From contig JAFROL010000039.1 in the NCBI GenBank assembly GCA_017429685.1, forward strand, positions 1-42,060: 42,060 nt of DNA, read 5' to 3'. Both the position numbers and the translations under genes were made by a program. The notes beneath the pieces were generated by a model. It had not been told where the DNA came from. It made no database searches and worked only from the letters and a program-made list of their open reading frames with translations. Position 1 is the first letter of the stretch. Every line of letters starts with the position of its first letter. Below are positions 10,845 through 29,866 of the stretch, piece after piece. Origin of the DNA: Bacteroidales bacterium. GTDB taxonomy: Bacteria; Bacteroidota; Bacteroidia; Bacteroidales; P3.

Positions 10845-10891
10845 CTGTGACACGAACGCGTCAGCCCGTTCTCCGTTCTCCGTTTTCCGTT
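10845..10891. repeat. CTGTGACACGAA plus GGAAARC filler before the polymerase gene
   Basis: CCTGTGACACGAACGCGTCAG (split here as CCTGTGACACGAA then CGCGTCAG) is followed by three to four 7-bp units GTTCTCC / GTTTTCC at about 10868-10891. The first part matches 17541-17552; the second is the reverse complement of the GGAAARC minisatellite at 12415 and 24087. It ends 5 nt before the ATG. Confidence 0.75.
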
Positions 10892-10896
10892 ACAAA

Positions 10897-12417
10897 ATGT
10901 CACGCGCGCGCACATATATCGCCATCGATCTCAAATCGTTCTATGCCTCTGTCGAGTGCACCGAACGTGGGCTTAATCCGCTCACCACCAACCTCGTGGT
11001 GGCCGATGCCTCGCGCACCGAGAAGACCATCTGCCTGGCCGTCTCGCCCGCGCTCAAAGCCTACGGCATAGGCGGACGTGCGCGCCTGTTCGAAGTCGTA
11101 CAGCGACTGCGCGAAGTCAACCAAGACCGCCAGTTCCACGCCCCAAGCTACCGCTTCAGCGGCAAGTCGACCGACGACAACGAGCTCAAAGCCCATCCCG
11201 AACTGGCTGTCGACTACATCGCCGCGCCGCCACGGATGGCCCACTATATCCAGTACAGCACACGCATCTACCAGATCTACCTTCGCTACATCGCCCCCGA
11301 AGACATCCACGTCTATTCGATCGACGAAGTCTTCATCGACGCCACCAAATACCTGAAAAGCTACAAGATGACAGCCCACCAGCTGACCATCAAGATGATA
11401 CGCGACGTGCTGCGCGAAACAGGCATCACCGCCACCGCCGGCATCGGAACCAACCTCTACCTCGCTAAAGTCGCTATGGACATCGTTGCCAAGCACATAC
11501 CCCCCGACAGCGACGGCGTGCGCATCGCCGAACTCGACGAGATGAGCTACCGCCGCACGCTCTGGGACCATCGCCCCCTGACCGACTTCTGGCGCATCGG
11601 ACACGGCATAGCGCGCCGGCTGGAACGCAACGAGATATACACAATGGGAATGCTGGCTCGCCAGTCCGTCACCAACGAAGAAAAACTATACAAACTCTTC
11701 GGAGTCAATGCCGAACTCATCATCGACCACGCCTGGGGATGGGAGCCCGTCACCATCGAGCACATCAAAAAATATCGCCCGCAAGCCAACTCGCTCAGCA
11801 GCGGACAAGTGCTCCAAAACCCCTACAGCGCTTCCAAGGCTCGCATCGTGGCGCAAGAGATGGCCGACGCCGTAGCGCTCAACCTTGTCGAAAAACGACT
11901 GACAACCAACCAGGTAACGCTGACGGTGAACTACGACACCGAATGTCTCACCAATCCCGACATCAGGGCCAAATACCACGGCGAGGTGGTCATAGACCAC
12001 TACGGCCGTCCCGTGCCCAAATACGCACACGGAAGCGTCGCGCTGCCATTCCACACCTCGTCGGCGCGCTACATAGTAAACGCCATATTGCAAATCTTCG
12101 ACCAAACCGTCAACAGCGACCTGCTTGTGCGCCGGCTCACCATAGGCACACTCAACGTAACGCCCGAAGAACTGACAGAAAACCCCTTCGGCGACCAGTA
12201 CATCAACGACCAACTGAATCTTTTCACTGATTATGACCAACTTGAAGAACAACGCAACAAGGAAAGCGCCACCCTCGAGCGCGAACGCAAAATGCAGGAA
12301 GCCCTCATAGGCATCAAACGCAAATTCGGCAAAAACGCCATCCTCAAAGGCATCAACTTCGAAGAAGGCGCCACCGCCAAAAGCCGCAACAGCCAGATAG
12401 GAGGGCACAAAGCGTGA
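10897..12417 (+). CDS. Y-family DNA polymerase, UvrX/UmuC-like
   Basis: A 506-residue error-prone translesion polymerase. Motif I is [15 protein letters not shown] (metal-binding D), the second catalytic element is [10 protein letters not shown], and [14 protein letters not shown] belongs to the palm. A helix-hairpin-helix thumb ([20 protein letters not shown]) and little-finger domain follow. The C-terminal tail [20 protein letters not shown] with [10 protein letters not shown] is typical of the UvrX-like branch in Firmicutes and Bacteroidetes, where it may bind the clamp or a partner. A YolD-like gene, the usual companion of this branch, lies 1 kb downstream. The TGA stop forms part of the first 7-bp unit of a minisatellite. 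Confidence 0.9.
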
Positions 12418-12533
12418 AAGCGGAAAGCGGAAAACGGAAAGCGGAAAACGGAAAGCGGAAAACGGAAAGCGAAAAGCGGAAAGCGGAAAGCGGAAAACGG
12501 AAAACGGAAAGCGGAAAATGGAAAACGGAAAAC
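12415..12533 (+). repeat. GGAAARC 7-bp minisatellite, 17 units
   Basis: Seventeen contiguous 7-nt units, nearly all GGAAAGC or GGAAAAC (exceptions TGAAAGC, GAAAAGC and GGAAAAT). The first unit contains the polymerase stop codon. Related units lie at 10868-10891 and, in frame, inside the A2M gene at 24087-24153. Confidence 0.95.
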
Positions 12534-13729: not shown

Positions 13730-13806
13730 TCAGTTCTTATATCGTTCTTATATTCGCAATATAAGAACGATATAAGAACTGAATTTTTTCGATATGCAAA
13801 AATGCG
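13730..13806. repeat. Interspersed palindrome, copy A, with attached 17-nt motif
   Basis: Perfect 24-bp arms (13730-13753 and 13759-13782) around the 5-nt loop TCGCA. Each arm contains TTCTTATAT twice. After 7 nt comes CGATATGCAAAAATGCG (13790-13806). Copy B at 29788 has the same arm core and a motif that agrees at 14 of 17 positions. Confidence 0.9.
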
Positions 13807-14184: not shown

Positions 14185-15567
14185 ATGAAAGACAACAGAG
14201 ACAGCATTGATTTCCGCAACGAGGAAATCGGCAAACTTTTTGGACAGCTTTTCATCCCAACCCTGCTGGGAATGATTTTCAATATGGCCTTCATCATCAC
14301 CGACGGCATCTTCGTAGGGCACGGCATCGGTCCGCAGGGGCTGGCGGCCATCAACCTCGTCGGTCCTATTATGATGCTTATCAACGGATTGGGTATGATG
14401 TTCGGCGTGGGCGTCAGTGTCGTCGCGGCCATCCATCTGGCCAAGGGCAACATCAAGGCGGCGCGCATCAACACGACGCAGGCCTTCACGGCGGGCATCA
14501 CGGTGTCGATGCTGATTGGCACAGTGTGCTACTGCGCGCCCCACGCGGTACTGTCGCTGCTGGGCGCCTCCGGGGCGCTCTACGACGCTGCCTACGAGTA
14601 CTACGTCTGGTTCATCCCCACCTGCCTGCTGATGATGATCGAGACGATAGGCCTCTTCGTCATCCGCCTCGACGGCTCGCCGCGCTACGCTATGTTTTCC
14701 AATATGTTGCCGGCGCTTGTCAACATCGCCCTCGACTATATCTTCATCTTCCCCTGCCACTGGGGCCTGATGGGCGCATCGCTGGCCACCGACATCGGCG
14801 GCCTGGTGGGTGTGCTGATGGTGGCTTACTATATGATTTTCAAGTCGAAGACGCTGCGTCTGTACCGCCTGAAGCGCACGGCGAAGAGCCTGATGCTTTC
14901 GCTGCGCAATGTGGGATATATGGTCCGCACCGGTGCCTCGGGTCTTGTCGGCGAACTGGCTGTGGCGGTGATGATGCTGACGGGCAACCTGATGTTCAAG
15001 CGGTGGCTCGGCGACGACGGCATAAGTGCCTACAGCATAGCCTGCTACCTGTTCCCACTTATATATATGGTTTATAACGCTGTGGCGCAGTCGGCGCAGC
15101 CTATCATCAGCTTCAACCACGGTGCGCAACTGACGACACGCGTGCGCAAGACATTGTCGTTCAGCCTTGTGGTCAGCATACTGCTCGGTGTGGCTATCTC
15201 GGCGGTGTTTTTCTTTTTCGCACCTGGCGTGGTGAGCATTTTCCTCGACAACGACACGCCGACGGGCATCATCGCCACCGAGGGACTGCCCTACTATGCC
15301 ACCGGATTCGTCTTTATGGCCATAAACATCTGCGTTGTAGGCTACTATCAGAGCATCGAGCGCGCCGGGCTTGCCGTGCTGCTGACGCTGCTGAGGGGTG
15401 TCGTCTTCCTCGTTGCGGCCTTCGTGGTGCTGCCGTCGTTGATAGGCACAAAAGGCCTCTGGCTGGCCATCCCTCTCGCCGAACTGCTGACCACACTGGT
15501 AATCGTGTCAATCCTGCTGGCCAAATTTTTGCCTGCTCGCAGGCGAGCGAGATCTTGTGGATCTTGA
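14185..15567 (+). CDS. MATE-family multidrug/sodium antiporter
   Basis: A 460-residue membrane protein with about 12 helices in two MatE halves. LFIPTLLGMIFNMAFIITDG and the following HGIGPQGLAAINLVGPIMML are the typical first-helix region of the NorM/DinF-like superfamily, and the second half starts near VGYMVRTGASGLVGELAVAV. These pumps export cationic compounds in exchange for Na+ or H+. Start at 14185 rather than an upstream TTG. The last ten residues (ARRRARSCGS) are encoded by the first copy of a GCTCGC..GAGATCTTG repeat, so the original C-terminus has been replaced or extended by repeat sequence. Confidence 0.9.
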   Translation: MKDNRDSIDFRNEEIGKLFGQLFIPTLLGMIFNMAFIITDGIFVGHGIGPQGLAAINLVGPIMMLINGLGMMFGVGVSVVAAIHLAKGNIKAARINTTQAFTAGITVSMLIGTVCYCAPHAVLSLLGASGALYDAAYEYYVWFIPTCLLMMIETIGLFVIRLDGSPRYAMFSNMLPALVNIALDYIFIFPCHWGLMGASLATDIGGLVGVLMVAYYMIFKSKTLRLYRLKRTAKSLMLSLRNVGYMVRTGASGLVGELAVAVMMLTGNLMFKRWLGDDGISAYSIACYLFPLIYMVYNAVAQSAQPIISFNHGAQLTTRVRKTLSFSLVVSILLGVAISAVFFFFAPGVVSIFLDNDTPTGIIATEGLPYYATGFVFMAINICVVGYYQSIERAGLAVLLTLLRGVVFLVAAFVVLPSLIGTKGLWLAIPLAELLTTLVIVSILLAKFLPARRRARSCGS

Positions 15568-15702
15568 GGATTTTCTTTTTCTCCTGCTCGCAAGCGAGCG
15601 AGATCTTGTAGATCTTGTGGATTTTATTTTCTTTCTCCTGCTCGGCGTACCGCCTCGCGAAATCTATAGATCTTATAGATTATAACGCTCGCAACGCGAG
15701 CG
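15532..15702. repeat. GCTCGC..GAGATCTTG repeat, three copies plus a half
   Basis: Three direct copies of about 43-46 bp start at 15532, 15583 and 15637. Each begins CCTGCTCG, runs through an inverted GCTCGC/GCGAGC core, and continues with GATCTTGTGGATCTTG-like sequence; the third is diverged. A further CGCTCGCAACGCGAGCG stem is at about 15686-15702. The first copy overlaps the end of the MATE gene. A related copy lies at 31835. Confidence 0.85.
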
Positions 15703-15797
15703 AATTGCTGATAATTGCTGACCAATTGCTGGTAATTGCTGTTAAAAAAAATATTTCTGCTAATTCCTGGCCAATTTCTGGTAATTCCTGTTGAAAA
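15703..15797. repeat. AATTGCTG / TAATTCCTGG filler repeat
   Basis: Four AATTGCTG units (15703-15742) are followed by TAATTCCTGGCCAATTT and TGGTAATTCCTGTTGAAAA (15761-15797). The second block recurs at 38139-38174 with one mismatch over its first 32 nt. Confidence 0.85.
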
Positions 15798-15798
15798 A

Positions 15799-15846
15799 GT
15801 TGAAAGTTGAAATGGCTGCGTCAGCCAATAAATTTCAACTTTCAAC
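15799..15846 (-). terminator. Terminator of the ppdK-pckA unit, made of TTGAAAG filler
   Basis: Perfect 15-bp arms (15799-15813 and 15832-15846, GTTGAAAGTTGAAAT) around an inner GGCTG/CAGCC stem. Read leftward it is followed by TTTTTC. It lies 24 nt after the pckA stop codon. Confidence 0.7.
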
Positions 15847-15870
15847 TCTCAACTTAAAAATTTAGGTCTC

Positions 15871-17531: not shown

Positions 17532-17583
17532 ACCTGTGACCTGTGACACGAATTGTTCGTATCACTGGTCACAGGTCACAGGT
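17532..17583. repeat. Inverted GACCTGTGAC filler between ppdK and pckA
   Basis: Perfect 16-bp arms (17532-17547 ACCTGTGACCTGTGAC and 17568-17583) around a 20-nt loop. It begins 8 nt after the ppdK stop codon (reading leftward), so it may act as an intercistronic stem-loop. The same units occur at 10845 and 31965-32023. Confidence 0.85.
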
Positions 17584-17590
17584 CACTTAT

Positions 17591-23435: not shown

Positions 23436-26400
23436 TCACTTGACAATCTGCATCTTTCCACCCGCGCTCGAGGCCCTGAATTCCGGAGCATAGAGACACT
23501 GCATTGTGGCCGGAGCCAGCAAAAATGTTCCTGCATTGTTGACGTACAAGTCGTATTCGGCCACATAGGAGCCCTTCTCGATGCGGTCGATGTAGAGAGT
23601 ATGTGCTGTGTTGGTTATGGCAAGATAGTAGCTCAGTCCGCCGTTCCAGTGCCATCCGCTCTGAGTACTGACAGGCTCGAAGCCGGCGCAGCGCGGGTCT
23701 TTCAGCTCAAGGTATTCCATATTGCGGTCGGCGCTGATTTCGATGCGTACGCGAACCTTGTCGCCCACCTTGAGCTGCTGTGTGGCGGGTATGAGCTTGT
23801 CGCCGTCCACCTTGTAGAGGCTACGCTTGATGGTGATGCCCATTGCGCTGGCGGGTATTTTCTCGATATTCTCGAAATACTGCCAGTACATCGCGCCCCA
23901 GGCTATGCCATTGTCCGCCTTGCGCACAGTGAGGTGCCCGTCGTCGGGGGTAATGCTGTCGCCGGGCAGGCGACGGCTGATATGCAGCTGCGCACGCGAC
24001 GTGTCGGTGGCAAGCGTATGACTGCCGAAAGTGACGGAGATGCGAGATGTGAGATGTGAGATGTGGGAACTGGCTGCCGCGTTAGGGTTCTCCGTTCTCA
24101 CTTCTCCGTTTTCCGCTTTCCGCTCTCCGCTTTCCGCTTTCCGTTTTCCGTTCAAGAGGAGGGCCTGGATGGCGCTGACGGTGCTGACGTCGGTGTTCCA
24201 GTTGGTGGTCTGCTTCTGTTTGAGGAGCCACTGCTGCATTTTGGCAATGCTTTCGCTGTCGCCCAGCACCTCGTCGAAGGTGCGTATCAGCATAGCCTGC
24301 GTCTCGATGGGGCGCTCGCTCCAGCTCCAGCCGCCGACGTTGTCGCGCCAGTACATACCCATCTCGTCGCTGTAGAGGGCTTTTTCGCGGATGCGCACAG
24401 CCATTTCGCGAGCCAGCTTTGTGTCACCTGCGCGCTGGAAGACTACGCCAAGCATTGCCTGGGTGAAGAGCGAACGGTAGTTTTCGTTGTATTTCTTGGC
24501 GTTGCCGTAGAAGAAGTCGTAGGCTTCCTGCTGCCGCTTGCTAAGCTTGTTGTCGGGATAGAGGCTGCGCAGATAGAGGTAGTCGAGGTTGACGACGTCG
24601 TAGCCGCGACTTTTGACATACTTTATATAATATGTATATGTCTCTTTGTCGACATAGTCCATAGCGCGGTCGAGGGCGCGGCGCGTGCGGCTGTCGAGTT
24701 CCACGCCCTGCTGGCGCAGGTGTCCGAAGGATTTGAGGATGTACTGCGTGGTGTAGAGGCTCGACCAGCGGCCGCCGTCGATCCAACTCCATCCGCCGTC
24801 GGCGCGCTGTGCCGCCAGCAGCTGGTCAAGGTCTTTCTGTAGCTGTCGGCTCAGAGTTGTTCGGTTGAAGAAGCGGGCCACGTCGCGGTGGCGCTGCTCC
24901 TCGCCGATGGCGTCGCGCAGCCAGGGGGTCTCGTCCATCACCGTCTGCTTGAGGTCGGTGTTGCGATCCAGCTCTGATTGGAAAGCCTCGGGCTCGTTCT
25001 GCTCCCACTCGCGGAACAGCTGCTCGATTTGGGGATTGCTTTTGACTATGTTGAACGACAGGCTGTTGGTGTAGATAGCATTGGCCAGATAGATGTTCGA
25101 CGGGTTCTTCTGCTGCGCCACGTACGGCAACGACTGGATGGCAAGCCAGATGGGGTTGGGCGTGAGATCGACTGTCAGCGAATGATTCTTCAGAGTCCAG
25201 TCAATATCGTCGGTCGATTGCTTTGCAGTTTCCATCAAGTGCTTGAGTTCAAACTCCTTCTCCCCTGCCCCATTGATGTAGAAAGCCATTGATTCGGTGA
25301 CGAGCTGGCGGCTGGGCAGCAGCGGTATCGCCGCCTGTTCGCCGTCGCTGACGCCGTCGCCACGGGCAATGACCCTGTAGTTGGCCATAAACACCGGAAC
25401 CCTTGGAGCCGCCAGCACAAAGCTGACTTCGCTGCTGGCGCCGTCCTTGACGGCAACCCGACGCGTGTCGCCACCCACGACCATCGGCAGCGGCTCGTTG
25501 CTGACGGCATCAAGCATTTCGAGCGAGACGTCGACCGTCTGGTCTTTGCCGCTGAGGTTGCTGACCTTGACCGACAAAACACAGGTGTCGCCGTGTCGCA
25601 GGAAGCGCGGCACATTGGGCACCACCATCAGTCGCTTCTGCGTGATGGCACGGGCATTGATGTTCCCCACCTTAAGGTCCTTGGTCCACGCCAGTCCGCT
25701 GATGCTCCATTCGGTGAGCAGTTCGGGAGCGGTGAACGAAAGCTCGACAAGGCCGTCGTCGCCACTGCGCAGCGTCGGACGGAAAAAGGCCAGCGTGTTG
25801 AGGTTCTGGCGCAGCTGAGGCTCGTCGCCATTGTTTTCGGACGGGTCTTTGCTTTTGCTTTCGACAGGACCCTCGTCGTCAACGACTTGCAGTTCGTTCG
25901 TCAACTCTGCATCATCATCGATATAGCCGACGCCGGCCACCGAGGCGACAACGGAATTGACGGAATTGACAGAATGGATGTCGTCGGAGGTTAGCCTCTG
26001 GCCGCTTTCGGCTACGCCGACTTCGATAACCGGCACTTTTTCGGCCATAACCACAAAGCCACTTTCGCCACGGGCCGTTGCCGTCTTGTACATACGGTTT
26101 GAAGCATATTGCCGCTCGAAAAAGCCCTCCTTCAGCGTTGTGATGCGGTAGCGATAGGAGGCATTGGGTCGGAATGGCAGATTTGGAGCGAATCCGTAAC
26201 TTCCTGACGTTTCATAGTTTATATTGCCAAAAATAGTGGAATATGAATTCTGGCTCCAAGGGCTGAGATGCCAGTTCAGGCTGCCGTAGGTGTCCAAAGC
26301 GTGGTCGTACATCGTCATCAGCAGGTTGGCGGCTATCGGCTTGCCGCTTTTCCGGTCCTTGATGCGTAGCGTCCAGCGTTCGTTGCTGCCGGGCTCGAGC

Positions 26401-29400
26401 TTGTCGCGGAAGGTCTCGAAGCTGACGTCGAGCCGCTTGTCAGAGTAAGGCACCTCGATATCGAAACTGCTGCGTTCCATAACGTTGGCTTTAACGGCAG
26501 CGACTTCGACTTTGAATCCGCCCAGCATCTCCTCGCCGACGGGAACCACGACTTCGATAAAGCCATTGCTGACGGTGCGAACCAGGTGACGGTAGCAGAC
26601 ATTGTGTTTATGTATAAGGACATAAAAAGCGACGTCGTCGTAGCGGCTTCCGAGGCGGAGGGTCAGGCTGTCGCCCACCTCGCACTCCGCTTTGTCGACC
26701 GAAGCCGACAGCAGGGCGGAACCGACAGGCCGACGGGCACCCGACGGCTCGTAGACGATATCCTTCGTCGCCGTCATCGTGTCGCCACCCACGGTGCGCA
26801 CCGTGGCACGCAGCCGGTAGGCACCTGCAGCCAACCCCTTGAGGCTGTATCGATAAGGGCTGTCGGCAGCAAAGCGCACTTGGGTCGAAAAGACAGATTT
26901 CTCGGCGGGCCAACGCTCAATGTCGGATGCCGAGCCGTCATAGTCATAGTACGGAAACAGCCGTTCGAACTCGCTGCGGCCCAACGGCATAGCGATGGTG
27001 CTGTCGTTATAGTCCATAATATCGTAGCGCATCCGTGGCTTGTCGGGCTTCGCCAGTCGCACCACCTCGATGCTGGCAGTGCCGTCGAGGGCTTGTCCGT
27101 CAAGGTTGCGGCAGACAAGGGCAAGCGACACGTCGTCGCGGTTTTCGTCATTCTCGTCAATATAGGCAAAGCTGTTGACAAAGCCGACATTAATCGAAGC
27201 CCGTGCGCTGTGTGTTTCGCCGTTGATGTCGGTCACATCGACATTGACGGTATACGTGAAGCAGGGTTTGCGGCCAAAGTCGGCATTCGAGTCGGGCATC
27301 GGGACGAAGTCGATATTGAAGGTACCGTCGTCGGCCGTAACCACCTCGCCGCTGACCACCGTTTTCGTTTCAGCAGGATGCCACCAGCGGTCCCATCCGC
27401 GACGCCACCAGGGGTGCATCTCGTTGCGGTCGACGGTGTAGCTCACCTTGGCGCCACTAATGGGCACAGCGCTGTACGAAGCGGCAACGCCCTCAAAACG
27501 AGCCGTCTGGCCAAAAGCATTTTCCTTGGCTGGAGCCGAAAGGGTGACGGTGAACTTTGGCTGCTTATATGCTTCGACGATGAAATATTTCGACTCGCCG
27601 CCGTATTGGCCAGTCCGTATCGACCACTGGCCCGGAGTGGCGTCGGCAGGCAGGACGAAGCGGCCCTCGCACAGTCCGTATTCGTCCGAAACGAGCGTCA
27701 GGGTATCGACAGACTTGCCGTTTATATCCTTGAGAATGAAATCCAAATCGCGTGCTGGGACTGTGAAACCGTACGTGCGGTTGTCGCGATAGGTCAGGTG
27801 GGCAAACGACACGGTGTCGCCTGGCTTATAGACAGGCCTGTCGAAAAAGAAATGCGCACTCTGCGCCATCGGCGAAGGTGCAAGCGAATCCTTGTCCAGC
27901 CAGCCGGTTTCGTTGCTAACCTCGTAGCCTTTGTATGTCGCGGAAACGCGCGTGTCCACCATCCTCCCCATCGACTTCCAGTCGGCCTTGACGTAAGGCG
28001 AGAAATCATAGTATCCATCCTTGTCGGTGCTTGTTGTGGCCAATGTGCGGGATGGGCTGTTGTAGTCCCTGCGACCCTTGAGCTTCACGAAGAGGTTGGC
28101 GACTGGGCGTCCGGTGGCGCGCTCGATAACGAAACCGCGCTGGGTTGCGCCGTTGTTGCGGTCGGCGACAAAGACGATGTCCTCGACCTTGAAGTGCAGC
28201 GTGGCGATACCGCCGGTGTCGAAGCCGGGCACGTCCGAAACAAGCAGCAGGTAGTCGCCCTGCGGCAGCGGCGGAACGACGGTGTACGAATCCTGCCGCT
28301 TGTAGTCGCCACGCAGCGCTACAGGCTGGTCCCACTGTTCTATTACCTTCTGTTGTAGCAGTTTGCTGCGCATTTCCTTATCTCCGCGCCTGTTATAATA
28401 GTCAACATAATTGATGACTCGGAAATACAGATGGTCGACATTGGTCGAGTGGACCACAGCCAGCTGCGACTGCGACGAAACACCGATCCTGTTCATATCC
28501 AGCCTGATAACTTTTGCCGTTATGTGGCAGCGCAAGTTGTGGCAGCTGACGCCGCCGGGGCTGTCGGGGAAAAGGGCCAACGCCGTGTCGATGGCTGCCA
28601 CAGCCTCCACATAACGGTTTTGGCCATAAAGCAAATTTGCCAAATCACTGTAAAGTTGAGTGATACGGCTATCGGCACCGTGCCGGTAGCGTGCAATAAC
28701 CTTGGGCAGCAGTTTGAGTTTCAAATCATTGTATTGAGGGTCAGTAAAGTTGACAAACTGACGAACATATACATCCCTGAAAATGTAGAGCTCAATCATC
28801 AGTCCGTCGCTGTCGCCGTCGTTGCGGCGCAGGTGGAGGCGTTCCATCTGCTGCAGCGTTTCGAGCGCGAACTGTGCCGGTGTTTCCGTCTTCGTTTTCA
28901 TACGAAGTATCGTAAACATTTCGCTTTCAGCAAAAAGCATTTCCATAGAACCTATATCCGACGGCAGCAGGCGCTCATAGTTCATCATCGTCAGCAGTTC
29001 CAGCGCTTTGCGTGCAACGACATCGAAAGCCGTCGGCGTCAGGTCGCCGTCCGTGCCGTCGATGATTGTCGCCAGCTCGCCCAGCGCCTCGCTCGGCGTC
29101 TGCATCAGCAGCGACGTGTCGGCCAGCGCCAATCGCACCAGGGCATCGACGCTGTCGCGCAGACGCTCGGTCGACCAGAGGGCGATGTCCAGCCCCGCCT
29201 CGTCCGACTCGCTGTTCCGCTCGACGCGCCAGCGGTTGCGGCTGTAGTACGACGCATAGTAGTCGGCCATCAGGATGCGGCAAACGGACGCGTCCAAAGG
29301 CTGCAGCGACGGCAGCAGCGAGCGGAAGCGCATCAGGGCCGTGTCGGCACCGTTCTCGCGATAGGCCGACCCGATGCGCGACAGATACTGCGCCGCCACA

Positions 29401-29597
29401 AGGCTTTGGCGCGAGTTGCCCTCCTTCACGGCGGCGGCATAGAGCTGGTCGGCCCGCGTGTAGGCCTGGGTGTAGTACTGCTTCATTTCAAAACTGTCCA
29501 CTGCGCGCCATCCGGCGGCATAGTCCACAACCTGCGCAGCCGCGAAAAACGGCGACAGCGCGAAAGCGACAAGGACTAAAAAACGAAAAGTTCTCAT
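23436..29597 (-). CDS. Giant alpha-2-macroglobulin-like (MG2/A2M) protein without thioester
   Basis: A protein of about 2,053 residues with a signal peptide (MRTFRFLVLVAFALSPFFAA, cut before AQ), so periplasmic or surface-attached. The first ~400 residues are helical and TPR-like. A carboxypeptidase-regulatory-type domain (GFVIERATGRPVANLFVKLK) follows, then MG2 with PVYKPGDTVSFAHLTYRDN near residue 590, further MG domains, and the A2M domain (LSFTAPELLTEWSISGLAW, about 1290). The helical thioester-type domain has PYVAQQKNPSNIYLANA where thioester-bearing members have a CxEQ motif, so the covalent trap is absent. At about residues 1815-1852 a minisatellite-encoded stretch is inserted in frame. 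ATGs at 29624 and 29630 are alternative starts. Probably protects against or binds proteases; exact role unknown. Confidence 0.88.
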   Translation of the reverse strand: MRTFRFLVLVAFALSPFFAAAQVVDYAAGWRAVDSFEMKQYYTQAYTRADQLYAAAVKEGNSRQSLVAAQYLSRIGSAYRENGADTALMRFRSLLPSLQPLDASVCRILMADYYASYYSRNRWRVERNSESDEAGLDIALWSTERLRDSVDALVRLALADTSLLMQTPSEALGELATIIDGTDGDLTPTAFDVVARKALELLTMMNYERLLPSDIGSMEMLFAESEMFTILRMKTKTETPAQFALETLQQMERLHLRRNDGDSDGLMIELYIFRDVYVRQFVNFTDPQYNDLKLKLLPKVIARYRHGADSRITQLYSDLANLLYGQNRYVEAVAAIDTALALFPDSPGGVSCHNLRCHITAKVIRLDMNRIGVSSQSQLAVVHSTNVDHLYFRVINYVDYYNRRGDKEMRSKLLQQKVIEQWDQPVALRGDYKRQDSYTVVPPLPQGDYLLLVSDVPGFDTGGIATLHFKVEDIVFVADRNNGATQRGFVIERATGRPVANLFVKLKGRRDYNSPSRTLATTSTDKDGYYDFSPYVKADWKSMGRMVDTRVSATYKGYEVSNETGWLDKDSLAPSPMAQSAHFFFDRPVYKPGDTVSFAHLTYRDNRTYGFTVPARDLDFILKDINGKSVDTLTLVSDEYGLCEGRFVLPADATPGQWSIRTGQYGGESKYFIVEAYKQPKFTVTLSAPAKENAFGQTARFEGVAASYSAVPISGAKVSYTVDRNEMHPWWRRGWDRWWHPAETKTVVSGEVVTADDGTFNIDFVPMPDSNADFGRKPCFTYTVNVDVTDINGETHSARASINVGFVNSFAYIDENDENRDDVSLALVCRNLDGQALDGTASIEVVRLAKPDKPRMRYDIMDYNDSTIAMPLGRSEFERLFPYYDYDGSASDIERWPAEKSVFSTQVRFAADSPYRYSLKGLAAGAYRLRATVRTVGGDTMTATKDIVYEPSGARRPVGSALLSASVDKAECEVGDSLTLRLGSRYDDVAFYVLIHKHNVCYRHLVRTVSNGFIEVVVPVGEEMLGGFKVEVAAVKANVMERSSFDIEVPYSDKRLDVSFETFRDKLEPGSNERWTLRIKDRKSGKPIAANLLMTMYDHALDTYGSLNWHLSPWSQNSYSTIFGNINYETSGSYGFAPNLPFRPNASYRYRITTLKEGFFERQYASNRMYKTATARGESGFVVMAEKVPVIEVGVAESGQRLTSDDIHSVNSVNSVVASVAGVGYIDDDAELTNELQVVDDEGPVESKSKDPSENNGDEPQLRQNLNTLAFFRPTLRSGDDGLVELSFTAPELLTEWSISGLAWTKDLKVGNINARAITQKRLMVVPNVPRFLRHGDTCVLSVKVSNLSGKDQTVDVSLEMLDAVSNEPLPMVVGGDTRRVAVKDGASSEVSFVLAAPRVPVFMANYRVIARGDGVSDGEQAAIPLLPSRQLVTESMAFYINGAGEKEFELKHLMETAKQSTDDIDWTLKNHSLTVDLTPNPIWLAIQSLPYVAQQKNPSNIYLANAIYTNSLSFNIVKSNPQIEQLFREWEQNEPEAFQSELDRNTDLKQTVMDETPWLRDAIGEEQRHRDVARFFNRTTLSRQLQKDLDQLLAAQRADGGWSWIDGGRWSSLYTTQYILKSFGHLRQQGVELDSRTRRALDRAMDYVDKETYTYYIKYVKSRGYDVVNLDYLYLRSLYPDNKLSKRQQEAYDFFYGNAKKYNENYRSLFTQAMLGVVFQRAGDTKLAREMAVRIREKALYSDEMGMYWRDNVGGWSWSERPIETQAMLIRTFDEVLGDSESIAKMQQWLLKQKQTTNWNTDVSTVSAIQALLLNGKRKAESGERKAENGEVRTENPNAAASSHISHLTSRISVTFGSHTLATDTSRAQLHISRRLPGDSITPDDGHLTVRKADNGIAWGAMYWQYFENIEKIPASAMGITIKRSLYKVDGDKLIPATQQLKVGDKVRVRIEISADRNMEYLELKDPRCAGFEPVSTQSGWHWNGGLSYYLAITNTAHTLYIDRIEKGSYVAEYDLYVNNAGTFLLAPATMQCLYAPEFRASSAGGKMQIVK
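24043..24153 (-). repeat. GGAAARC minisatellite plus ATCTCAC repeat inside the A2M coding region
   Basis: On the coding strand about nine GGAAAAC / GGAAAGC / GGAGAGC units (24087-24153) are followed by a short spacer and almost three copies of CACATCTCA (24043-24066). The frame stays open. Three 7-bp units make seven codons, giving [14 protein letters not shown] and GEVRTEN, then NPNAAASSHISHLTSRIS. Confidence 0.95.
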
Positions 29598-29787
29598 AAG
29601 GCTGTTATTCTGGTGAATTTTCATTTCCACTTTACATTAGTAGCAAAAAGGAATATTTTTTTACAAAGAAACGAAAAAAAATGTCAAAAATTGCCATCGC
29701 CGGCAGCAAAATATTACTGACAGAAAAAACAGCCCGCCCTCACGGCAGCGCCGGGCGACATCGGCCCCCTTTTTGCCCATCGGAGGA

Positions 29788-29866
29788 ATTCAGTTCTTAT
29801 ATCGTTCTTATATCGCGGATATAAGAACGATATAAGAACTGAATAAAAACGGTATGCCAAAAGGCG
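29788..29866. repeat. Interspersed palindrome, copy B, with attached 17-nt motif
   Basis: Perfect 26-bp arms (29788-29813 and 29819-29844) around the loop CGCGG. The inner 24 bp of each arm are identical to copy A at 13730. CGGTATGCCAAAAGGCG follows after 5 nt (29850-29866). It lies in the gap between the A2M gene and tRNA-Arg; the rest of that gap (29598-29787 and 29867-30009) shows only GC-rich sequence with small stems such as GGCGGCCTTGCCGCC. Confidence 0.9.

What the first reader, a model, noticed from the sequence alone, without database searches (positions are those of the whole stretch)
24043..24153. Minisatellite inside a coding region: 7-bp GGAAARC repeat makes a heptapeptide repeat in the A2M protein
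The intergenic repeat seen at 12415 is present within the 6-kb A2M gene without breaking the frame. Because 7 is prime to 3, three DNA units give seven codons, producing GKRKAES / GERKAEN / GEVRTEN. A second repeat (CACATCTCA) follows and encodes SHISHLTSRIS. The stretch lies in a loop between domains near residue 1830. Slippage of fewer than three units would break the gene, so it may act as a length-dependent or on/off switch of a surface protein.
Basis: partly seen in the sequence, partly recalled or inferred. Interest (0 to 1): 0.75.

Follow-up and report, generated by a model that had tools for sequence, protein, structure and literature searches.

The report
Palindromic repeat element inside A2M gene
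The 7-letter repeat in this gene is one copy of a palindromic repeat element scattered through a Bacteroidales bacterium's genome, which sits just behind genes and also, with the reading frame kept, inside unrelated household genes.

Summary
In detail: a 7-bp GGAARRC array and a second 7-bp array (ACATCTC, not 9 bp) lie in frame in a 2064-aa A2M-family gene, far above shuffled controls. Together they are one copy of a dispersed element: arm, GGCTGMCGCGNCAGCC-like core, arm. The genome has 434 overlapping three-unit GGARARC matches and 22 exact cores; 14 of 14 cores examined carry repeat arms. In selected stretches, 17 of 29 intergenic arrays behind a same-strand gene start 1-6 nt after its stop. 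Other copies lie in frame in MiaB, RadA, Mfd, BirA, DsbD, LacZ and others; A2M, MiaB and GT2 copies have the same order of parts and similar peptides. At 75 matching sites in relatives, 74 inserts keep frame; so do 30 of 30 A2M orthologues examined. The A2M insert is predicted with very low confidence, as a disordered linker would be. An on/off switch of a surface protein is not supported. Best reading: a repeat element that works like Rickettsia palindromic elements, with slippage-prone heptamer arms like those of Xanthomonas and Nostoc, kept where harmless. How it spreads is unknown.

The parts
23436..29630 (-). Host gene: A2M-family protein, 2064 aa, signal-peptide-like N-terminus; no C.EQ thioester motif found
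   Evidence: motif search; the signal peptide is read by eye
24037..24153 (-). Whole composite element (117 bp, length of 39 codons), in frame, about residues 1826-1865, low-confidence (probably disordered) linker in the model
24087..24153 (-). First arm on the coding strand: (GGAARRC)n, about 9.6 units; the regular part is 24105-24152
24072..24087 (-). Core palindrome relic, coding strand CCCTAACGCGGCAGCC, compared with the common core GGCTGMCGCGNCAGCC
   Evidence: one search compared by eye
24037..24065 (-). Second arm: (ACATCTC)n on the coding strand, 4.1 units; its reverse complement resembles the purine-rich TGAGATG/GGAGATG units seen elsewhere
12416..12533 (+). Intergenic copy: (GGAAARC)n array of about 17 units; its first unit overlaps the TGA stop codon of ORF 10897-12417
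10849..10891 (-). Second intergenic copy: array 10866-10891 next to a half-core (GGGCTGACGCGTTCGTGTC on the minus strand)

Best explanation
The stretch is one copy of a dispersed palindromic repeat element of this Bacteroidales genome. A copy consists of a short palindromic core (GGCTGMCGCGNCAGCC-like) between two tandem-repeat arms, often (GGAAARC)n on one side and (ACATCTC)n, (CATTAACA)n or the inverted purine array on the other (shown). A usual place is behind genes: arrays often start 1-6 nt after a stop codon in the sense of the gene, and the two copies folded from between converging genes form a strong hairpin in silico (shown). It probably acts there as a 3'-end hairpin or is just tolerated there (inferred). 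Copies also lie inside genes, with lengths that keep the frame and at loops that are short and plain in some relatives (frame and site shown; that selection against harmful copies is the cause is inferred). Because 7 is prime to 3, any frame of the array gives the same seven-residue peptide. Once in place the arms change length, probably by slippage, and shared irregularities between close species point to vertical inheritance. For the A2M protein the insert is most likely a neutral, flexible extension of a linker, not a switch. The agent that spreads the element is unknown.
For:: 69 DNA matches to window 24000-24200 in the own genome (40 of 201 candidates scored), some spanning both arms; 434 overlapping three-unit matches in G000, 0 for the reversed control; 22 exact cores in G000, control 0; 14 of the 14 fetched are flanked by repeat arms (12 of 14 by GGAAARC, 2 of 14 by TTAAC-type arms on both sides). 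In G007 the one core site (C35:8109) lies 4 nt behind an array; in-frame arrays in genes of 16 recognisable families, A2M counted. A2M, MiaB and GT2 copies have the order array, core, ACATCTC arm, with peptides AAASSHISHLTSRIS, DAASSNISHLTSHIT and AAASKFSHLTSHIS; 75 matching sites, 74 in frame, 18 with at least two exact units (12 of 13 in the nearest relative G061, 6 of 62 in the six others); 13 of 75 have 15 nt or less there (MiaB of G007 3 nt, GT2 of G063 3 nt, rhamnosidase of G063 and G007 15 nt). G000 and G061 differ by exactly 21 bp (three heptamers) in RadA and BirA; in the three in-gene TTAAC arms looked at, units that would read TAA read TCA; 29 of 35 intergenic arrays follow a gene on the same strand, 17 of 29 within 6 nt of its stop; the two convergent copies folded give -54.1 and -56.3 kcal/mol (z -5.5 and -8.2). 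A2M insert has pLDDT under 50.
Against: No target-site duplication, excision or donor enzyme was shown. The elements could be grown in place by slippage and gene conversion rather than inserted; G064 MiaB has a short GGAGAAAGTGAA stretch (NGESE) that could be a seed. The core pattern is not clearly above its reversed control in most other genomes of the genus (for example G001 1 against 7, G004 6 against 10), so the core may be particular to this genome and a few others. The A2M core is a diverged relic, and in the alignment the GT2 core does not line up with those of A2M and MiaB. The rhamnosidase copy replaces a QGATT loop kept in two relatives, so not every copy is clearly harmless. TTCAC units also occur in an intergenic arm (L095), so stop avoidance in genes is not proof of selection. 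The Y1 transposase region looked at has other repeats around it, not this core. The A2M copy does not fold clearly better than shuffles (z -1.74, 12 of 200 as good), nor do the two non-convergent intergenic copies (z 0.68 and 0.26). L045, the closest A2M orthologue, has the array but no core. Low pLDDT also occurs in four other short segments of the model and is weak evidence of disorder.
Confidence: 0.8

Rival explanations
1. Phase-variation switch: slippage of the 7-bp units turns the A2M protein on and off.
For: 7-bp units break frame unless changed by threes; unit number differs between species; one frame-broken relative at another gene (RlmB-like gene of G035, 94 nt); the A2M protein has a signal-peptide-like start (by eye).
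Against: Similar arrays in household genes. 30 of 30 A2M orthologues examined are in frame, 74 of 75 inserts elsewhere are in frame. Units are degenerate (GGAAAGC, GGAAAAC, GGAGAGC, GGAGAAC mixed), which should lower slippage (general knowledge). Only 3 of 30 orthologues carry two or more GGARARC units.
Confidence: 0.07
2. Plain slippage-born minisatellite: repeats arise and grow independently in loops and spacers of a genome prone to 7-bp slippage, with no mobile unit.
For: Heptamers are the most abundant long repeats in many genomes (PMC4679880 citing Mrazek 2007, passages read). Period 7 dominates the fetched stretches (61 arrays; 26 for period 14, 12 or fewer for each other period from 4 to 15; a sample chosen for these arrays). 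21-bp length steps in RadA and BirA.
Against: Three unrelated genes share not only the unit but the order array, core, ACATCTC arm. 14 of 14 core sites examined adjoin repeat arms. Independent slippage does not predict a shared core.
Confidence: 0.2
3. Functional 3'-end element (bidirectional terminator or mRNA stabiliser) selected behind genes; in-gene copies are misplaced by-products.
For: 17 of 29 arrays start within 6 nt of the stop in sense; same-strand downstream ORF starts lie at least 42 nt away (21 cases). Two convergent copies form very strong hairpins. A relative has TGAGAGCGGAGAAC at the same gene end as the window's 12.4-kb array (L115).
Against: No U-tract was seen behind the core in the copies printed (by eye); the two non-convergent intergenic copies fold no better than shuffles. 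At the same gene end two of four relatives have no array and one has another repeat. No random-position null was run for the stop distance. No expression data.
Confidence: 0.3

Closest known systems
Rickettsia palindromic elements (RPE; Ogata 2000 and 2002, not read, as told in passages of the review PMC10969869)
   Same: Small palindromic dispersed repeats, in frame inside unrelated genes as well as between genes, adding a recurring peptide to the host protein.
   Different: Other phylum; here the arms are tandem heptamers of variable number and the fixed part is only a 16-bp core. No sequence comparison with RPEs was made.
GGGAATC and GGGGATT heptamer repeats of Xanthomonas and Nostoc (Rehm 2015, PMC4692102, passages and sections 10 and 13 read)
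   Same: Genome-wide G-rich heptamer arrays, many within 50 bp behind stop codons on the coding strand or overlapping them, convergent inverted pairs in Xanthomonas, length differences between close species.
   Different: Unit GGAAARC has only GG runs, so a standard quadruplex is not expected; a palindromic core between arms is not mentioned in what was read; there 11% and 7% overlapped ORFs in the two Xanthomonas genomes, and no tie to loops of household genes is told in what was read.
TAACTGA heptamer repeats of Beggiatoaceae, Cyanobacteria and five Bacteroidetes (MacGregor 2015, PMC4679880, abstract, passages and section 15 read)
   Same: Dispersed, mostly intergenic heptamers, some in ORFs, discussed by the author as possibly mobile.
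   Different: Other unit, in the main genome mostly just upstream of start codons, stop codons in all three forward frames, in-ORF copies mostly at protein ends.
REP/BIME elements with RAYT transposases (general knowledge; PMC3733652 seen only in a search listing)
   Same: Short palindromes between genes, dispersed in one genome.
   Different: The Y1 transposase region of this genome at C50 holds other palindromes, not this core.

Membership tests
Rickettsia palindromic elements (works like; not filed as) | In-frame presence in many unrelated genes | tested here: met
Rickettsia palindromic elements (works like; not filed as) | Element is a palindrome over most of its length | tested here: inconclusive
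   Core palindromic; the two convergent copies fold strongly, the A2M copy only weakly (z -1.74), two others not
Rickettsia palindromic elements (works like; not filed as) | Sequence homology to a known RPE family, in Rickettsiales | not tested
   No RPE sequence was compared; the host is taken as Bacteroidales from the record titles of close relatives
Genome-wide heptameric simple sequence repeat | Tandem heptamer, dispersed over the genome far above chance | tested here: met
   434 overlapping three-unit matches, control 0; shuffles of gene and window
Genome-wide heptameric simple sequence repeat | Coding-strand position close behind stop codons | tested here: met
   17 of 29 within 6 nt, in stretches chosen for arrays and without a random-position null
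Genome-wide heptameric simple sequence repeat | GGG tracts able to form a standard G-quadruplex (Xanthomonas/Nostoc type) | tested here: not met
   The GGARARC units contain only GG; by inspection, no folding assay
REP element mobilised by RAYT | Core present around the RAYT gene | tested here: not met
   no core or array pattern in 3.7 kb around G000:C50:130464-130805 nor in 2.5 kb around the weak C34 hit; Y1_Tnp occurs in 31 of 41 genomes, while arrays occur in 13 of 61
Phase-variable contingency locus | Repeat-number variation with on and off states within one species | not testable with these tools
   One genome per species and no reads at hand
Phase-variable contingency locus | Frame-broken forms among relatives | tested here: not met
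   0 of 30 A2M orthologues examined; 1 of 75 at other genes
Alpha-2-macroglobulin family (host protein) | MG2, bait-region, A2M and bMG10 domains above curated cut-offs | tested here: met

The most novel reading that the evidence does not exclude
The 16-bp core is the active part: a hairpin-forming site that repeatedly seeds new tandem arms of different units around itself (by hairpin-directed slippage or an unknown templating enzyme), so that one element type both marks gene ends and writes new peptide linkers into household proteins. In support, at the same site different species keep a core or part of one but bear different arms: rhamnosidase of G000 and G035, Mfd of G000, G063 and G061.
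Probability: 0.15. Interest if true: 0.8.

Novelty: new variant of a known kind. Interest (0 to 1): 0.52.

Why it matters
In-frame colonisation of household genes by small palindromic DNA is best known from Rickettsia (other cases, such as enterobacterial RU elements, were seen only in a search listing). A second, unrelated lineage with an estimated 100 arrays in a genome, arms of variable length and relatives with empty, short and long forms at the same sites would let one test how selfish DNA becomes protein sequence. It also warns that 7-bp repeats in a gene of such a genome are not by themselves evidence of phase variation. Searches of the paper library for heptamer repeats with Bacteroidetes, Bacteroidales, rumen or Prevotella listed only the TAACTGA paper and a Porphyromonas assembly paper (listing only).

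Tried and rejected
RAYT/REP origin: rejected for this core because the region of the Y1 transposase gene lacks it. Known RNA family: Rfam at gathering score finds only one tRNA in the window. The 9-bp unit for the second repeat: rejected in favour of 7 bp. Hairpin function for all copies: of five copies folded only the two convergent ones fold clearly better than their shuffles. Special stop-free nature of the unit: true in all six frames for the four GGARARC units tested, but about half of all heptamers (8264 of 16384) share it, so this alone explains little. Exact long pattern for the ACATCTC arm: only one site in 61 genomes, too strict to be useful. Library searches were broad and gave mostly unrelated papers; one search listed the two heptamer papers used here. 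One search listed the MITE review.

Limits: the G000 stretches L069-L099 were chosen because they hold arrays, so shares of intergenic and in-gene copies are not genome-wide rates. ORFs are mechanical and some of the 9 'inside antisense' counts are probably spurious ORFs. The 14 genes were chosen because G000 holds arrays in them, so their lower frequency in relatives is partly ascertainment. Of 98 gene-genome pairs, 77 places were fetched; 2 of the 77 (L235, L236) were dropped for lacking one flank. That the matches are orthologues rests on flank similarity. The 30 A2M orthologues are those of L010-L029 and L039-L049 with both anchors (L027 had not both); L030-L038 and L050-L068 were not put into that comparison. 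The structure used 33 of 45 sequences at hand. The estimate of about 104 arrays scales 434 matches by a ratio from selected stretches. 'Household' is my wording for the families named. The label DUF2723 for the L096 gene inside script 40 is recalled; its scan gave no family.

Full report
What is there. The finding lies in a minus-strand gene of 2064 codons (23436-29630) with the MG2, bait-region, A2M and bMG10 domains of the alpha-2-macroglobulin family. The coding strand reads a (GGAARRC)n array (24087-24153, 9.6 units), then a relic of a 16-bp palindrome (CCCTAACGCGGCAGCC, 24072-24087), then an (ACATCTC)n array (24037-24065, 4.1 units). Codon shuffles of the gene never came near the observed 7-bp periodicity (25 against a maximum of 10 in 500). 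A model of the C-terminal 505 residues built on 33 sequences gives pLDDT below 50 for residues 1828-1860, between the helix at segment 256-265 and the strand at 305-309 (mean pLDDT 75.4, pTM 0.57; four other short segments are also below 50).

It is one of many. The window is part of a 2.65-Mb genome (G000). Its closest relatives in named records are uncultured Bacteroidales, several from sheep rectum and yak rumen by their titles. The DNA of 24000-24200 has 69 matches in G000. The three-unit pattern GGARARC occurs 434 times (overlapping count; 0 for the reversed control), which scales to roughly 100 arrays. Among 61 genomes searched, own included, the pattern occurs in 13, all of the same genus. 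A four-unit pattern occurs in 4 of 393 genomes drawn from the order: the own genome, one more of the genus, and two of other families.

The element. In 31 stretches taken around such hits plus the window (267,827 bases) I printed 68 islands. Arrays often end in GGCTGMCGCGNCAGCC or a part of it and go on into another repeat: (CATTAACA)n, (ACATCTC)n, or the inverted purine array. To test this without choosing by arrays, the exact core pattern was searched: 22 sites in G000, control 0. I fetched 14 of the 22 (13 of them outside the earlier stretches). All 14 have a repeat arm on at least one side, 12 of 14 the GGAAARC array, 2 of 14 TTAAC-type arms on both sides. In most other genomes of the genus the core pattern is not clearly above its reversed control; in G007 its one site lies 4 nt behind an array. 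So in G000 the unit of repetition is arm, core, arm, and the A2M copy is a whole though diverged one.

Where it sits. Of 63 arrays with three or more units, 36 are intergenic, 18 lie inside ORFs in sense and 9 in antisense (mechanical ORFs, some antisense ones probably not real). Of 35 intergenic arrays with an upstream neighbour, 29 follow a gene on the same strand, and 17 of the 29 start 1-6 nt after its stop; 21 have a same-strand ORF downstream, none nearer than 42 nt. No random null was run for these distances. The array at 12416 overlaps the stop of the 506-aa ORF before it; of four relatives at the same gene end one has a short array overlapping the stop, one another repeat, two no array. 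Two copies between converging genes fold very strongly (-54.1 and -56.3 kcal/mol, z -5.5 and -8.2); the other three copies folded do not (z 0.68, 0.26; A2M copy -1.74).

Copies inside genes. Recognisable hosts besides A2M are MiaB, a GT2/exopolysaccharide enzyme, a LacZ-type beta-galactosidase, an RlmB-like methyltransferase, RadA, an iron-sulfur repair protein, a GH2 enzyme, a rhamnosidase, a RecD-like helicase, DsbD, BirA, Mfd, an IGHMBP2-type helicase, RicT and a GH94 enzyme. A2M, MiaB and GT2 copies have the same order of parts and similar peptides; in the alignment the A2M and MiaB copies line up behind the core and over the arms, the GT2 copy only over the arms. In BirA the array is antisense (RFPLSAF) and still open. 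In the three in-gene TTAAC-type arms looked at, units that would read TAA read TCA, though TTCAC units also occur in an intergenic arm (L095).

Relatives. For A2M, 30 of 30 orthologues examined keep the frame; 3 of 30 (L045, L011, L048) have two or more GGARARC units. L045, the closest, has a shorter array, no core and a CACAATTCAC stretch in place of ACATCTC; L047 has a basic loop without a heptamer array. For 14 other genes I compared 75 sites in 7 relatives: 74 of 75 inserts are multiples of three; 18 of 75 carry at least two exact units, 12 of 13 in the nearest relative G061 and 6 of 62 in the other six; 13 of 75 have 15 nt or less at the site. Some have other repeats or dispersed elements there (Mfd of G061, GT2 of G035, RlmB-like of G061), and in rhamnosidase and Mfd different species keep a core or part of it but have different arms. 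G000 and G061 differ by exactly three units in length in RadA and in BirA. The GT2 copies of G000 and G061, and the LacZ copies of G000, G061 and G063, share irregular units, which points to inheritance from a common ancestor. The one exception to the frame rule, RlmB-like in G035 (94 nt), splits the reading frame, in an assembly of 75% completeness.

How it most likely works. Shown: a dispersed composite repeat, often at gene ends, in frame inside genes at variable loops, with arms that differ in length between species. Inferred: arms change by slippage; frame and loop position reflect selection against harmful copies; the A2M copy is a neutral linker extension. Not shown: what spreads the element. 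The Y1 transposase region of the genome has different palindromes around it. The switch hypothesis is unlikely because the hosts are mostly household genes and only one broken frame was seen.

Known relatives in kind. Heptamer arrays behind stop codons with convergent pairs are described in Xanthomonas, and similar arrays in Nostoc (PMC4692102; passages and two sections read); TAACTGA heptamers in Beggiatoaceae, Cyanobacteria and five Bacteroidetes (PMC4679880; abstract, passages and one section read); in-frame palindromic elements in Rickettsia (told in passages of the review PMC10969869). The present element combines these features, with a core that nothing I read describes. I rate it a new variant of a known kind.

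Noticed in passing
window 13733-13779 and 29793-29855: Two copies of an inverted pair of 11-bp tandem repeats (GTTCTTATATC ... GATATAAGAAC), another hairpin-like repeat of this window.
   Followed up: no
window 15532-15798: A 51-bp tandem repeat (CCTGCTCGCAAGCGAGCGAGATCTTGTAGATCTTGAGG...) and a 49-bp one, with many matches in the relatives' genomes; a similar piece sits in frame in the RlmB-like gene of G061 (L162).
   Followed up: partly
window 15796-15855 and 17532-17586: Further inverted pairs of short heptamer arrays (AAAGTTG/TTTCAAC and ACCTGTG/TCACAGG) near ORF ends.
   Followed up: no
L224 (G035:C18:40-780): RlmB-like gene split by a 94-nt heptamer array that is not a multiple of three; either a real off form, a decaying gene or an assembly error.
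   Followed up: partly
L085 (G000:C23) against L173, L226, L220: In the rhamnosidase the element replaces a QGATT loop kept in two relatives; a third relative has another element with a similar core but a different first arm there.
   Followed up: partly
L073 and L087 (ends of contigs C1 and C17): Contigs of the assembly end at or close to repeat arrays, so repeats may limit the assembly.
   Followed up: no
G000:C2:118286-124471: A second, distant A2M-family gene in the same genome (about 29-43% identity in pieces).
   Followed up: no
L243 (G000:C50:128800-132500): A Y1-type transposase gene surrounded by other palindromic repeats (GCCTCGGAGAGGCTG..., CACCGCACTGCGCC...), unlike the core described here.
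   Followed up: partly
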